This document shows positions 33,228 through 38,272 of a stretch of 64,000 nt of DNA, piece by piece; within the stretch, counting starts at the first letter, position 1; every line of letters starts with the position of its first letter. The stretch lies in NCBI RefSeq assembly GCF_900110455.1, contig NZ_FOIS01000001.1:558001-622000 (forward strand). Reading direction: 5' to 3'. Below the pieces are notes generated by a model. It searched no databases and was not told where the DNA came from. It saw nothing but the letters and a program-made list of their open reading frames with translations. Origin of the DNA: Natrinema salifodinae (GTDB lineage Archaea > Halobacteriota > Halobacteria > Halobacteriales > Natrialbaceae). The position numbers and the translations under genes are program-made.

Positions 33228-33692
33228 TTACTCGTAGAGCCACTCGGCGTCGTGCTGATCGTAGTCGATCAGCTCGTCCTCGTCGAAGTGGATCGCGATT
33301 TCGCGTTCGTTGGCGCCCTCATCCTCGTGATCGGCCGCGTGAACGACGTTCCGACCGAGGTCGAGCGCGTAGTCGCCCCGGATCGTCCCGGGTTCGGCCT
33401 CGAGCGGATCGGTCTCGCCGATCATCTGGCGGACCTGGCGCGTCGCGTCCTGGCCCTCCCAGACCATCGGGACGACCGGGCCGGAGGTGATGAAGTCCAC
33501 GAGGTCATCGTAGAACGGCTTGTCCTCGTGCTCGCTGTAGTGTTCCTCGGCCCGCTCGCGGGGCATGTTCTCGACCTTGATCCCGACGAGCTTGAGCCCG
33601 CGGTCCTCGAGTCGGGAGACGACCTCGCCGACCAGGCCACGCGCGAAGGCGTCGGGCTTGACCATCACGAAGGTACGTTCGTGGTCGCTCAT
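33228..33692 (-). CDS. ndk: Nucleoside-diphosphate kinase
   Basis: 154 residues. TFVMVKPDAFARGLVGEVVSRLE at the start and NVVHAADHEDEGANEREIAIHF near residue 115, with phospho-acceptor His H118, are diagnostic. It moves the gamma phosphate of ATP to other nucleoside diphosphates. The start overlaps the stop of rpl24e by one base (TAATG), placing it last in the rpl7ae-rps28e-rpl24e-ndk operon, an arrangement conserved in archaea. The acidic C-terminus is a halophilic trait. Confidence 0.97.
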   Translation of the reverse strand: MSDHERTFVMVKPDAFARGLVGEVVSRLEDRGLKLVGIKVENMPRERAEEHYSEHEDKPFYDDLVDFITSGPVVPMVWEGQDATRQVRQMIGETDPLEAEPGTIRGDYALDLGRNVVHAADHEDEGANEREIAIHFDEDELIDYDQHDAEWLYE

Positions 33693-34108
33693 TATTCCTC
33701 GCTGTCCTCTTTGCCGCCGGCGACGTCGTCGAGTTCACCCTCGGCGGCCGCTTCGGCTTCGCCTTCGACGGCCTCCTTCTCGGCGACGGCCTCGTCGCCG
33801 GCCGGTTCGGTGTCCTCGTCTTCGTCGACGGCCTCGGCTTCCGTTTCGAGGTCCTCGTCCTCGGCGGCTTCGACCTGCTCTGCCTGATCGGCTTCCTCGG
33901 CGGCGGGCGTCTCGGCCTGGGCGGGGCCCTTGCCGCGACGACCCTCTTCGGTCCACTCGAGATCGCGCGGTTCGCGACCGAGCTTGTAGTTTTTCTCCGC
34001 CTTGGAGTTGACGAAGTGAAGCACCGTGCCGTCGTTCTTGACGTACATGATGCCCGTCCCGGGCTCGATCTCTTCGCCCGTGTAGTCGCAAGTGCGTTTC
34101 TCGACCAT
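33692..34108 (-). CDS. rpl24e: Large-subunit ribosomal protein L24e with long acidic tail
   Basis: 138 residues; the usual protein is about 60. Residues 1-62 are the L24e core ([42 protein letters not shown]). Of the four Cys that form the zinc site in many L24e proteins only C7 remains; the others are Thr, Val and Ala by alignment to the CxxC...CxxxC pattern. Residues ~63-138 are a Glu/Ala/Asp repeat-like extension with no Arg. The extension is in frame, ends at the TAATG junction with ndk, and is therefore real coding sequence. Confidence 0.92.
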
Positions 34109-34111
34109 TGT

Positions 34112-34336
34112 TTACTGTCCTCCGATGGAGTCGGCTTCGCGGGCGGTCTCGCGAAGCTGGAGTACGTCCCCTTCGCGGACCGGCCCGAGGCAGTTTCGGG
34201 TGATGATGCGTCCCTGGTTCTCGCCCTCCTGGATCCGGCACTTGACCTGCATGGCTTCTCCGTGCATGCCGGTCTTGCCGACGATCTCGATGACCTCGGC
34301 GGGCGTAGAGCCGCTTTCTTCCTCTTCAGCACTCAT
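34112..34336 (-). CDS. rps28e: Small-subunit ribosomal protein S28e
   Basis: 74 residues. [26 protein letters not shown] and [27 protein letters not shown] are the full S28e OB-fold signature. A short acidic N-terminal extension (AEEEESG) is haloarchaeal. It lies between rpl7ae and rpl24e with 11- and 3-base gaps. Confidence 0.97.
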
Positions 34337-34347
34337 CTTTGCTCACC

Positions 34348-34710
34348 TCAGTCGAGGTCCTCGACCTTGTCAGCGATATCCTCAACATCGTCGGAGGCTT
34401 CGCCTGCGTCGACGATCGCGGCAGCGGCCGAGCCGACCTCGAGGCCGGCGGCGTGACCGACGTCGTCCTGCGTCTCGATGAAGACGACGGGGATGCCCTT
34501 CTCGTCGGCGAGCTCCGGCAGGTGCATCACGATCTCTTCAGGCGAGACGTCCTCGGCGACGTAGACGAGCTCGGCGTTGCCGCGCTCGATCGCCTTCGTG
34601 GTCTCGTTGGTTCCTTTCTTTACTCGTCCGGTGTCTCGTGCGACCTCGAGCGCCTCGAGGGCGTCGTCCGCGAGGTCGGCTGGGATGTCGGTGTTAACGT
34701 AGACTGACAT
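34348..34710 (-). CDS. rpl7ae: Ribosomal protein L7Ae, k-turn binding
   Basis: 120 residues. [26 protein letters not shown] (about 32-57) and [30 protein letters not shown] are the L7Ae RNA-binding core. L7Ae binds kink-turns in 23S rRNA, in C/D and H/ACA guide RNAs and, in several archaea, in RNase P and in its own mRNA leader. It heads the rpl7ae-rps28e-rpl24e-ndk operon. The ribosome-binding site GGAGAGGTGA precedes the ATG at 34710 by a few bases. Confidence 0.97.
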
Positions 34711-34866
34711 GGTTGTTCACCTCTCCTACGCGTGGGCTCGCGCTCCCCTGCCGTCCGGGCGCTGGCACCCGGGCCGAGAACACTCGGCGGAAGTCCTGAG
34801 AGGCTAGGAGCATCATCAACCCCGCGTAGGGTGTACACTCGAATAGCGTTGCCCCCCTTAAAAGCG
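34711..34866 (-). promoter_or_regulatory. Structured 5' leader of rpl7ae with k-turn-like loop
   Basis: A TATA-like CTTTTAAG (about 34866-34858) predicts a transcript start near 34838, leaving a leader of about 125 nucleotides. CCTACGCG (34830-34823) pairs perfectly with CGCGTAGG (34732-34725), next to the ribosome-binding site. Inside lie a GGAGC/GCTCC helix (34742-34746 with 34807-34811), a perfect 6-bp hairpin with TGTT loop (34773-34788) and a 7-bp hairpin with CCAG loop (34755-34772). The loop between the outer helices has GTTGATGAT opposite GCGAG, which resembles a C/D-type kink-turn, the L7Ae binding motif. Confidence 0.65.
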
Positions 34867-35057: not shown

Positions 35058-35681
35058 TTATCCGTCGTCGGCTGCCGTTTCCATGGCCCGTTGGATCAAC
35101 TCGTCCTCCGGGAGGTCGTTGCGCATGAACTGGAGCAGCCAGTCGACGTGAACATCGAGGGTGAGCCCGCCCGTTTTCTTCGTCCCCTTCTTGTGATCCT
35201 CGCCCAGAATGGTCACCGTAATCGTCTCGATTGCGGCGATGAACGCCCGAGGATCGGTGACCGCGTCGGTCGCGGCCTGAAGGATCGCCGAGAGACGCTG
35301 TTTCAGTTCCTCGTCGGAACGGTCGCTCGACAACGCATTCGCGTCGAGGCCCGAAACCGACACTTCGACGGCGAGCGTCGAGTTATTGCGACGGAAGGTT
35401 TCGAGGTGAATACCTCGCTGTGCTAACTGCTCCTCGAGTACGGCTTCGTCGATGCCAGGGACGTCGCGCTTACCTTTCGTCTCGTCGTGCTCGTCGTCTT
35501 TGTCTTTGTCTTCGTCGGTCTCATCACCGTTCTCCGTCTCCGTGTCGTTCTCCTCGGTCTCCCCTTTCTCGTCGGGTCCGGTCGTCTCTTCGTCGTCGCT
35601 CGTTTGATCCCCGCCGGAACAGCCTGCGAGGACGGTTATCAGTCCGGCGCCAGTACCGAGGAGGATTTTTCGTCGCTCCAT
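35058..35681 (-). CDS. Tat-type lipoprotein with acidic linker, hypothetical
   Basis: 207 residues. The N-terminus has twin Arg (ERRKILLGTG), a hydrophobic core and the lipobox LAGC with C21 as the lipid-modified Cys, as in most haloarchaeal Tat lipoproteins. A Glu/Asp/Thr-rich linker (about 25-70) spaces a C-terminal domain of about 135 residues from the membrane. That domain has LEEQLAQRGIHLETFRRNNSTLAVEVSVSG and GLTLDVHVDWLLQFM. No family recognised. It stands alone. Confidence 0.8.
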   Translation of the reverse strand: MERRKILLGTGAGLITVLAGCSGGDQTSDDEETTGPDEKGETEENDTETENGDETDEDKDKDDEHDETKGKRDVPGIDEAVLEEQLAQRGIHLETFRRNNSTLAVEVSVSGLDANALSSDRSDEELKQRLSAILQAATDAVTDPRAFIAAIETITVTILGEDHKKGTKKTGGLTLDVHVDWLLQFMRNDLPEDELIQRAMETAADDG

Positions 35682-35983: not shown

Positions 35984-38272
35984 ATGAACGTCGTCGACGT
36001 CGCGACCGCCCTCCGCGACGAAGCGACCGAGGTCGGCGAGCGGCGGCTGTTGGCCCTCGCGGGCGACCGCGAACGCGGCTACGACGCCCTCGCGTCGATC
36101 CTCGATACTCTCCCCGTTCCGATCACCGAAACGTCGCTCGTCGGCCCCGACGACCGGCTCCGCTGCGAGCAGCTCTCCCAGGCCAACGCGGGCGAACTTC
36201 TGGGGACGACCCGAGACGTGATCGCGGTCGATGCCCACGACGAACTCCGACCGAACGCGCTCGGAAAAGTCGTCGGCGCCGTCGACGGCGGCGGCCTCCT
36301 ACTCTTCCTGACGCCGCCGCTCGACGAATGGCCCGACCGCCGCGGCGGGTTCGACGCGTCGCTCGCCGTCCCGCCGTTCGAACTGACCGACGTCACCGGC
36401 CGGTTCAAACGCCGCCTGGTCGAGACGCTTCGCGCCCACCGCGGGATCGCGATCGTCGACCTCGACCGTGGGCAGGTCGAAGACGACGGGCTGACGCATC
36501 CGGCCCCGCGTCCGGCGACGGGTGTGCCGGCGCCGCCCGCGGACCGCCGCTTTCCGGCCGCCGCCTACGAAGCCTGTCTCACGGCCGACCAGGCCGACGC
36601 GGTCGCGGCCTTCGAGTCGCTGTCGGACGCGGCGGACGACCAGGCGGTCGTGCTCGAGGCCGACCGCGGGCGCGGGAAGTCGAGCGCGGCGGGCCTGGCC
36701 GCGGGCGCGTTCGCCGCCGACGGCGAGGACGTGCTCGTGACCGCGCCCGCGGCGCGGAACGCGCGGGAACTGTTCGATCGGGCGGGCGAACTCTGCGAGG
36801 CGCTCGCGGCTGATGGCGCCGATGGAGACACCGAGGGATGGGACCCGCTGACGGTCGAGTCCCGCCGGATCGAAACGCCCGCCGGCGGGACCGTTCGGTT
36901 CCGCGAGCCGTCCGCGGCTGTCGACGAACTCGAGTCGGCCGATATCGTCGTCGTCGACGAGGCTGCCGCCCTCCCGGTCGCGACCCTCGAGTCGCTGCTC
37001 GCCGCCGATCGCGTCGCGTTCGCGACGACGATCCACGGCTACGAGGGCGCCGGCCGGGGCTTCTCGGTCCGCTTTCGCGACCGGCTCGCCGAGAGCGATC
37101 ACGAGGTGACCGACCGCACGCTCGTCGAGCCGATCCGGTACGCGGCCGGCGACCCCGTCGAGGTGTGGGCCTTCCGCGCGCTGTTGCTCGACGCTCGTCC
37201 GCCCGTCGAACCGCTGGTGGCCGACGCCGCGCCCGAGAACGTCGACTACCGGCACCTCGAGCCCGACGACCTGCTCGCCGACGAGCGCCTGCTCCGCGAG
37301 GCCTTCGGGCTGCTCGTGCTCGCTCACTACCGGACCGAGCCGAACGACCTGGCGCGATTGCTCGACGCGCCGAACCTGACCGCCCGCGCGCTCGTCCGCG
37401 ACGGCCACGTCGTCAGCGTCGCGCTGCTCGCGCGCGAAGGAGCCCTCTCGAACGAGACGCGGGCGATGATGTACGAGGGCGGTCGCGTGCGCGGGAACAT
37501 GCTCCCGGATGTGTTGACCAGCCAGTTGCGCGACGAGGCAGCGGGCGAGCCCGCGGGCCTGCGCGTCGTCCGCATCGCGACTCACCACGCGGCCCGTTCG
37601 CGCGGACTCGGATCGCGGCTGCTCGAGCGCGTGCGCGAGGAGTTTTCGGATTCGGCGGACTGGCTCGGCACCGGCTTTGGCGCGACGCCCGGTTTACTCG
37701 ACTTCTGGCGCGAGAACGGCTACCGGACGGTCCACGTCTCGACGACCCGCAACGACGCCAGCGGCGAGTACTCGTCGCTCATGCTCGCCCCGACGAGCGA
37801 CGCGGGCCGGGCGCTGCACGATCGCCACGCCGCCTGGTTCGCCCGCCGGTTCGCCGCGCTCTGTTCGGACTCGCTGGACGACCTCGACCCCGACGTCGGC
37901 CGCGCGGTGCTCCGGTCGGTCGATTCGGGGGCCGGCCCGCCGCTCGACCTGACCGACCACGAGTGGCGTGTCGTCGCGGGCGCCGCCTACGGGCCGGGAC
38001 TGTTCGACGTCGATCCGGGGCCGTTCCGCGCACTCGTCGTCCGATATTTCGTCGACGATCCCGCCGCCGTCGACCTGACGGCTCGAGAGGAACGGCTGCT
38101 CATTTTGCGCGCGCTTCAGAGCCGCGCCTGGCCGGCCGTCGCCGAGTTCCTCGACTACCCCTCGACGGGACAGTGTATGCAGGCGCTCGGCGACGCGTTC
38201 CGTCCGCTGGTCGACCGCTACGGAACGGACGCGGCGCTCGAGGTGCGGGAGCGGTTCGCCGACGACCCGTAG
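35984..38272 (+). CDS. tmcA: tRNA(Met) cytidine acetyltransferase TmcA
   Basis: 762 residues, full length for the family. An N-terminal domain is followed by the helicase-like ATPase with Walker A ADRGRGKSS (226-234) and VVVDEAAALPV. A GNAT acetyltransferase module follows (GLRVVRIATHHAARSRGLGSRLLERV, about 525-550), and then a helical tRNA-binding tail. It makes N4-acetylcytidine using acetyl-CoA and ATP; bacterial TmcA acts on the wobble base of elongator tRNA-Met, and archaeal homologues can act more widely. Monocistronic, with a leaderless-type promoter. Identification is firm; the target range is inferred. Confidence 0.95.
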   Translation: MNVVDVATALRDEATEVGERRLLALAGDRERGYDALASILDTLPVPITETSLVGPDDRLRCEQLSQANAGELLGTTRDVIAVDAHDELRPNALGKVVGAVDGGGLLLFLTPPLDEWPDRRGGFDASLAVPPFELTDVTGRFKRRLVETLRAHRGIAIVDLDRGQVEDDGLTHPAPRPATGVPAPPADRRFPAAAYEACLTADQADAVAAFESLSDAADDQAVVLEADRGRGKSSAAGLAAGAFAADGEDVLVTAPAARNARELFDRAGELCEALAADGADGDTEGWDPLTVESRRIETPAGGTVRFREPSAAVDELESADIVVVDEAAALPVATLESLLAADRVAFATTIHGYEGAGRGFSVRFRDRLAESDHEVTDRTLVEPIRYAAGDPVEVWAFRALLLDARPPVEPLVADAAPENVDYRHLEPDDLLADERLLREAFGLLVLAHYRTEPNDLARLLDAPNLTARALVRDGHVVSVALLAREGALSNETRAMMYEGGRVRGNMLPDVLTSQLRDEAAGEPAGLRVVRIATHHAARSRGLGSRLLERVREEFSDSADWLGTGFGATPGLLDFWRENGYRTVHVSTTRNDASGEYSSLMLAPTSDAGRALHDRHAAWFARRFAALCSDSLDDLDPDVGRAVLRSVDSGAGPPLDLTDHEWRVVAGAAYGPGLFDVDPGPFRALVVRYFVDDPAAVDLTAREERLLILRALQSRAWPAVAEFLDYPSTGQCMQALGDAFRPLVDRYGTDAALEVRERFADDP

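What the first reader, a model, noticed from the sequence alone, without database searches (positions are those of the whole stretch)
34711..34866. Highly structured rpl7ae leader with k-turn-like loop: likely L7Ae autoregulation
The ~125-base leader folds by eye into an outer 8-bp helix (34823-34830 with 34725-34732), a GGG/CCC extension, an internal loop GTTGATGAT opposite GCGAG, a GCTCC/GGAGC helix and two perfect adjacent hairpins. UGAUGA opposite CGA resembles a box C/D kink-turn, and the outer helix ends next to the ribosome-binding site. L7Ae is known to repress its own mRNA through a k-turn leader in other archaea; I am not aware of a described haloarchaeal example with this fold.
Basis: partly seen in the sequence, partly recalled or inferred. 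Interest (0 to 1): 0.65.

Follow-up and report, generated by a model that had tools for sequence, protein, structure and literature searches.

The report
Haloarchaeal L7Ae kink-turn mRNA leader
The mRNA for ribosomal protein L7Ae in salt-loving archaea starts with an elaborate, evolutionarily conserved RNA fold carrying the protein's own binding site (a kink-turn), very probably so that L7Ae can limit its own production; the principle is known in archaea, but this enlarged version across nearly all haloarchaea has not been properly described.

Summary
The leader is 34834-34711 (- strand), directly upstream of rpl7ae-rps28e-rpl24e-ndk. A covariance model built from it hits 370 of 391 Halobacteria genomes (nearly always one match) and nothing convincing outside the class; no Rfam family matches. 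In 93 divergent copies 16 of 20 pairs show compensatory changes (0/500 shuffles reach this). An ordinary helix drawn through the central loop shows none. The loop has the kink-turn fingerprint: U at L3, G1b, A2b and A1n in 93/93; 2n is G (86) or A (7); the bulge is 3 or 4 nt. The four basal haloarchaeal genomes sampled and 20 of 29 outgroup genomes (3% of shuffles) carry instead a compact kink-turn hairpin with its second GA at or 3 nt before the Shine-Dalgarno, the published L7Ae autoregulatory type. The haloarchaeal element is thus an enlarged descendant: a 12-bp C-helix separates kink-turn and ribosome-binding site, and a variable apical domain holds an unexplained GGA motif. L7Ae feedback repression is the best explanation. 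Prior work (Daume 2017; Huang 2019) covers the principle and named H. volcanii. This leader is predicted stably folded alone, unlike the published switch. New variant of a known kind; binding and repression untested.

The parts
34858..34863 (-). TATA box TTTTAA of the rpl7ae operon promoter
   Evidence: Sequence; TATA-like box at nearly fixed distance from the leader start in homologues
34832..34835 (-). Initiator TACA; inferred transcription start about A34834
   Evidence: Distance from start of TATA to TACA clusters at 28 nt (25-30, the lower values partly from a second TA match) while leader length varies from about 87 to over 200 nt; not tested by RACE
34711..34834 (-). Structured 5' leader (about 124 nt) of the rpl7ae mRNA
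34823..34830 (-). Outer helix, 5' arm CCUACGCG (C-helix, distal part)
   Evidence: Covaries with 34725-34732
34725..34732 (-). Outer helix, 3' arm CGCGUAGG; its AGG foot abuts the SD
34820..34822 (-). C-helix proximal 5' arm GGG, pairs with CCC 34734-34736
   Evidence: GC/CG/AU changes at the first pair
34815..34819 (-). -1b (U34819, pairs with G34737) and k-turn bulge U-G-A-U (34818-34815)
   Evidence: Bulge is 4 nt (UGAU, CGAU) or 3 nt (UGU, CGU, CAU) with last U in 93/93; -1b:-1n is U:G, C:G or U:A
34813..34814 (-). G1b A2b of the k-turn
   Evidence: Invariant in 93/93
34738..34739 (-). G2n A1n of the k-turn
   Evidence: A1n 93/93; 2n G 86, A 7
34807..34811 (-). NC-helix 5' arm GCUCC, pairs with GGAGC 34742-34746
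   Evidence: All five pairs show two-sided changes
34742..34746 (-). NC-helix 3' arm GGAGC
34802..34804 (-). Upper helix GCC, pairs with GGC 34750-34752
34794..34796 (-). Conserved apical GGA motif, function unknown
   Evidence: G 92, G 88, A 86 of 93
34773..34788 (-). Apical hairpin 1, present in Natrialbaceae, compensatory arm changes
34755..34772 (-). Apical hairpin 2, variable, expanded in some genera
34717..34723 (-). Shine-Dalgarno GAGGUGA, 6 nt before the start codon
   Evidence: Sequence; match to the 16S 3' end from general knowledge
34348..34710 (-). rpl7ae (eL8), presumed ligand, 120 aa
   Evidence: TIGR03677 172 bits; closest solved chain 9l94_E, E 1e-61
34112..34336 (-). rps28e, second gene of the operon
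   Evidence: NF003080
33692..34108 (-). rpl24e with a long acidic C-terminal tail
   Evidence: NF034186, PF01246
33228..33692 (-). ndk, last gene of the cluster
   Evidence: NF001908

Best explanation
The leader is a cis-acting binding site for L7Ae and works as a translational feedback device. Free L7Ae, made in excess over its rRNA, box C/D, H/ACA and RNase P partners, binds the k-turn formed by UGAU-GA (34818-34813) and GA (34739-34738). Binding clamps the 12-bp C-helix, whose CCU/AGG foot borders or contains the first bases of the Shine-Dalgarno, and puts a protein next to the ribosome-binding site, so 30S loading on rpl7ae (and probably the downstream rps28e-rpl24e-ndk genes) falls. Shown here: the RNA fold, the k-turn fingerprint, conservation with rpl7ae, homology of position and motif with known L7Ae leaders. 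Inferred: L7Ae binding, repression, steric or clamping mechanism, effect on downstream genes.
For: Fold: 16/20 pairs with two-sided changes, 95.3% of cells paired, 0/500 shuffles. Core: L3 U, G1b, A2b, A1n 93/93; 2n G or A; bulge 3-4 nt; -1 pair U:G, C:G, U:A. A normal helix through the loop has no covariation. The model hits 370/391 Halobacteria; in a separate set of 168 L7Ae-anchored upstream regions 164 have the b-strand. Four basal genomes and 20/29 outgroup genomes (3% of shuffles) have a compact k-turn hairpin with GA at or 3 nt before the SD. A. fulgidus L7Ae bound to its UTR k-turn has been crystallised (PMC6298567), and S. acidocaldarius L7Ae represses several archaeal l7ae leaders in a reporter (PMC5539422). 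A k-turn with A at 2n has been crystallised with L7Ae (PMC3985660). The window protein is a canonical L7Ae with the GTNE motif.
Against: No binding or expression data. Folding calculations make the outer helix about 99% formed without protein and show no change of SD accessibility on adding a k-turn bonus, so the simple unfolded/folded switch of A. fulgidus is not reproduced. In about half of the 93 copies the best SD match starts after the helix. The bulge is 4 nt in most copies rather than the standard 3. Conservation of the apical GGA motif is not explained by L7Ae binding to the k-turn.
Confidence: 0.82

Rival explanations
1. The leader is a structured element whose k-turn binds L7Ae, but the main effect is on mRNA stability or processing, or it activates or insulates translation, rather than repression at initiation.
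For: The leader is predicted stably folded regardless of ligand, so SD occlusion need not be switched. Its 5' end is at the helix base, which would protect the transcript end.
Against: Compact relatives place the SD at the C-helix, which argues for initiation control (PMC6298567).
Confidence: 0.12
2. The conserved element binds something other than L7Ae (another r-protein of the operon such as S28e or L24e, or a metabolite); the k-turn is only architectural.
For: The apical GGA motif is nearly invariant and unrelated to the k-turn; k-turns also serve as architecture in riboswitches (general knowledge; abstract of PMC4316175).
Against: Strict linkage to rpl7ae; relatives with only the compact k-turn hairpin keep the linkage without the apical domain.
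Confidence: 0.05
3. A translated upstream ORF starting at AUGAUG in the k-turn strand (leader peptide or attenuation).
For: An ORF starting MMLLA... occurs in many copies.
Against: Frame and end of the ORF are not conserved: all three frames relative to rpl7ae, some stopping in the leader and others running past it; some lineages lack any upstream ATG.
Confidence: 0.01

Closest known systems
L7Ae-binding k-turn leaders of archaeal l7ae mRNAs (Daume et al. 2017, PMC5539422; Huang et al. 2019, PMC6298567)
   Same: Same gene, k-turn core with L3=U followed by GA opposite GA, hairpin on the NC-helix in some members, SD close to the C-helix; outgroups of this genome carry that form.
   Different: Crown haloarchaeal form is 85 to over 200 nt rather than a short hairpin; about 12-bp C-helix separates k-turn from SD; 4-nt bulge in most; large apical domain with conserved GGA; predicted stable without protein.
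Yeast RPL30 k-turn autoregulation (L30e, cited in PMC6298567)
   Same: An L7Ae-family protein binds a k-turn in its own transcript.
   Different: Eukaryotic, also controls splicing; no sequence relation.
Archaeal ribosomal leaders of Eckert and Weinberg 2020 (S15 in Halobacteria, eL15, L4; PMC7247131)
   Same: Covariation-supported leaders upstream of archaeal r-protein genes.
   Different: Their table of new motifs has no L7Ae leader; eL7 appears only in a figure legend; their supplement could not be read here.
Box C/D and Kt-23-type k-turns
   Same: U at L3, tandem G.A pairs; A at 2n, seen here in one family, is known from Thelohania Kt-23 bound to L7Ae (PMC3985660).
   Different: Not a guide RNA: no guide sequence or second box pair was noticed, and it lies in an mRNA leader.

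Membership tests
L7Ae autoregulatory k-turn leader | Located in the 5' leader of the l7ae gene | tested here: met
   168 L7Ae-anchored upstream regions: 164 with the large form, 4 with the compact form
L7Ae autoregulatory k-turn leader | K-turn: 3-nt bulge then tandem G.A/A.G pairs between two helices | tested here: met
   Invariant U, GA, A; helices covary; bulge 3 nt in some lineages and 4 nt in most
L7Ae autoregulatory k-turn leader | SD adjacent to or within the k-turn stem | tested here: inconclusive
   SD borders or overlaps the foot of the C-helix but lies about 15 nt from the GA strand; adjacent in basal genomes
L7Ae autoregulatory k-turn leader | RNA unfolded without L7Ae, folded with it | tested here: inconclusive
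   Thermodynamic model predicts stable helices without protein; k-turn kinking itself cannot be computed
L7Ae autoregulatory k-turn leader | Direct binding by L7Ae and repression of translation | not testable with these tools
   Needs gel shift and reporter
Rfam RNA families (any) | Match to a covariance model | tested here: not met
   No match at gathering score or at E up to 5

The most novel reading that the evidence does not exclude
The haloarchaeal leader is a two-part device: the k-turn senses L7Ae while the conserved apical GGA domain contacts a second partner (ribosome, another protein or a tertiary docking site), so that the stably folded leader is controlled by a mechanism other than the unfolded-until-bound switch of other archaea.
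Probability: 0.2. Interest if true: 0.65.

Novelty: new variant of a known kind. Interest (0 to 1): 0.45.

Why it matters
Haloarchaea mostly use leaderless or short-leader mRNAs, and a transcription-start study concluded that structured leaders are not typical there (PMC4983044). This is a clear exception: a leader present in nearly all Halobacteria sampled, with strong covariation and a named ligand, not in Rfam. It shows how a minimal k-turn hairpin next to an SD grew into a large regulatory domain, gives a genetically tractable test (Haloferax volcanii) of L7Ae feedback, and suggests that the 50-bp H. volcanii fragment tested earlier lacks half of the native k-turn.

Tried and rejected
Ordinary helix through the internal loop (the in-silico minimum for this genome): no covariation, rejected. 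Alternative hairpin UCCU/AGGA between the NC-helix 5' arm and the apical loop: the apical GGA stays constant when the 5' arm changes, so not maintained. Pairing of the 5' UACA with the SD: UACA is better explained as the initiator, since its distance from TATA is nearly fixed. Upstream ORF: frame not conserved. Comparison with the genome's own 23S k-turn (Kt-15): no 23S found in this assembly. My first outgroup scan required a 3-bp C-helix and found almost nothing because the SD itself is the C-helix strand there; the second scan used NC-helix plus GA plus SD, so that criterion was chosen after seeing the sequences. Some automatic n-strand assignments were wrong and were replaced by the model alignment A2.

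Full report
1. Observation. The helices, the internal loop and the two adjacent hairpins are present at the stated coordinates. The leader folds 3.6 standard deviations better than dinucleotide shuffles. Downstream lie rpl7ae (34710-34348), rps28e, rpl24e and ndk, with short or no gaps.

2. Extent and promoter. A TATA-like box (TTTTAA, 34863-34858) precedes a TACA initiator (34835-34832). In nearly all haloarchaeal copies examined this spacing is close to 28 nt although the leaders vary greatly in length. The transcript therefore most likely starts at about A34834, four nucleotides before the outer helix. This is an inference from promoter geometry; no start-site data were available.

3. Conservation. 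Eighty named haloarchaeal loci encoding L7Ae were fetched and their upstream regions read. A structural alignment of 30 diverse leaders (A1) gave a consensus with 10 of 20 pairs covarying. A covariance model (R1) matched 370 of 391 Halobacteria genomes, nearly always once each. Where I compared positions with the L7Ae hits the match lay immediately upstream of the L7Ae gene. Outside the class the best scores were about 22 bits (E 0.015 or worse), against 28 to 121 bits inside. The genomes missed by the model in Halobacteria mostly carry a diverged version. No Rfam family matches.

4. Covariation on 93 copies (A2). 95.3% of cells are paired, 16 of 20 pairs change on both sides, and none of 500 shuffles reaches any of the five measures; sliding one strand by 1-3 columns abolishes the signal. 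A2 was fitted to the model, so it leans towards the structure; A1, which was aligned by sequence only, gives the same result.

5. The k-turn. Across the 93 copies the last bulge base is U, followed by GA, in 93/93; the facing A is 93/93, and the base before it is G in 86 and A in 7. The bulge is UGAU or CGAU in most, and UGU, CGU or CAU in others. The closing C-helix pair is U:G, C:G or U:A. The neighbouring 3b and 3n positions vary freely. An ordinary helix through the same bases, which the thermodynamic minimum prefers in this genome, shows no covariation. A at 2n is unusual, but an L7Ae complex with such a k-turn has been crystallised (PMC3985660, abstract).

6. Relatives. Four genomes of two divergent Halobacteria families (L167-L170) lack the large element but have a compact hairpin, e.g. 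CGU-AAU-GA-CGCGC-GGGA-GCGCG-GA-ACG followed by AGGUG, i.e. a classic k-turn 3 nt before the SD. In 29 outgroup genomes of the phylum, 20 have a k-turn hairpin whose second GA runs straight into the SD (GAAGGAGG or GAATGAGGT type), against 3% of shuffles that keep the SD zone. This is the type described by Daume et al. (PMC5539422) and solved by Huang et al. (PMC6298567, bulge GAU). The crown haloarchaeal leader therefore looks like this element enlarged twice: the C-helix grew to about 12 bp, pushing the SD away from the k-turn, and the NC-helix gained an apical domain (up to about 80 nt more in some Natrialbaceae).

7. Mechanism. Shown: conserved fold, k-turn core, gene linkage. Inferred: L7Ae binding, and repression of translation. 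The helix foot CCU/AGG is nearly invariant; in about half of the copies the best match to the SD consensus starts within the last three bases of the helix, in the rest it starts just after it (the SD consensus used is general knowledge). L7Ae clamping the C-helix would thus hinder 30S loading. Vienna calculations predict the outer helix to be formed about 99% of the time without any ligand and find no change of SD accessibility with a k-turn bonus. The unfolded-until-bound model of A. fulgidus is therefore not reproduced, and a steric, kinetic or stability-based effect is possible. The conserved apical GGA has no explanation.

8. Prior work. Daume et al. concluded that L7Ae feedback is a general archaeal feature, reported strong sequence conservation of leaders only in Sulfolobales, and tested 50 bp of H. 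volcanii upstream sequence; they note that a Kt-b strand lies further upstream in their alignment. In nine Haloferax species here that strand is 105-108 nt from the ATG, outside a 50-bp fragment. A start-site study judged structured leaders untypical of haloarchaea (PMC4983044). Eckert and Weinberg (PMC7247131) list four new archaeal leaders, none for L7Ae. I found no published haloarchaeal consensus structure in the searchable library; supplements could not be read.

9. Verdict. New variant of a known kind; interest 0.45.

Noticed in passing
34794-34796 and A2 columns 47-49: Apical GGA in the leader is nearly invariant (92, 88, 86 of 93) though the helices around it covary; no role found.
   Followed up: partly
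L120, L136, L138, L139, L140, L166 (family f2): One haloarchaeal family has A instead of G at k-turn position 2n (GCGCAAGCCC), a rare natural k-turn type.
   Followed up: partly
L009, L019, L020, L023, L025, L033, L037: Several Natrialbaceae (Natrialba, Haloterrigena salina) carry roughly 60-80 nt extra inside the second apical hairpin of the leader.
   Followed up: no
33692-34108: L24e has a 70-residue acidic Ala/Glu/Asp-rich tail after the L24e domain (Pfam covers residues 5-66 of 138).
   Followed up: no
35984-38272: Gene for tRNA(Met) cytidine acetyltransferase TmcA on the opposite strand; between it and the rpl7ae operon lies an unassigned 207-aa acidic protein with a lipoprotein-like start (35058-35681).
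   Followed up: no
L167-L170: Basal Halobacteria carry the compact k-turn hairpin directly before the SD, an apparent ancestral state of the large leader.
   Followed up: yes
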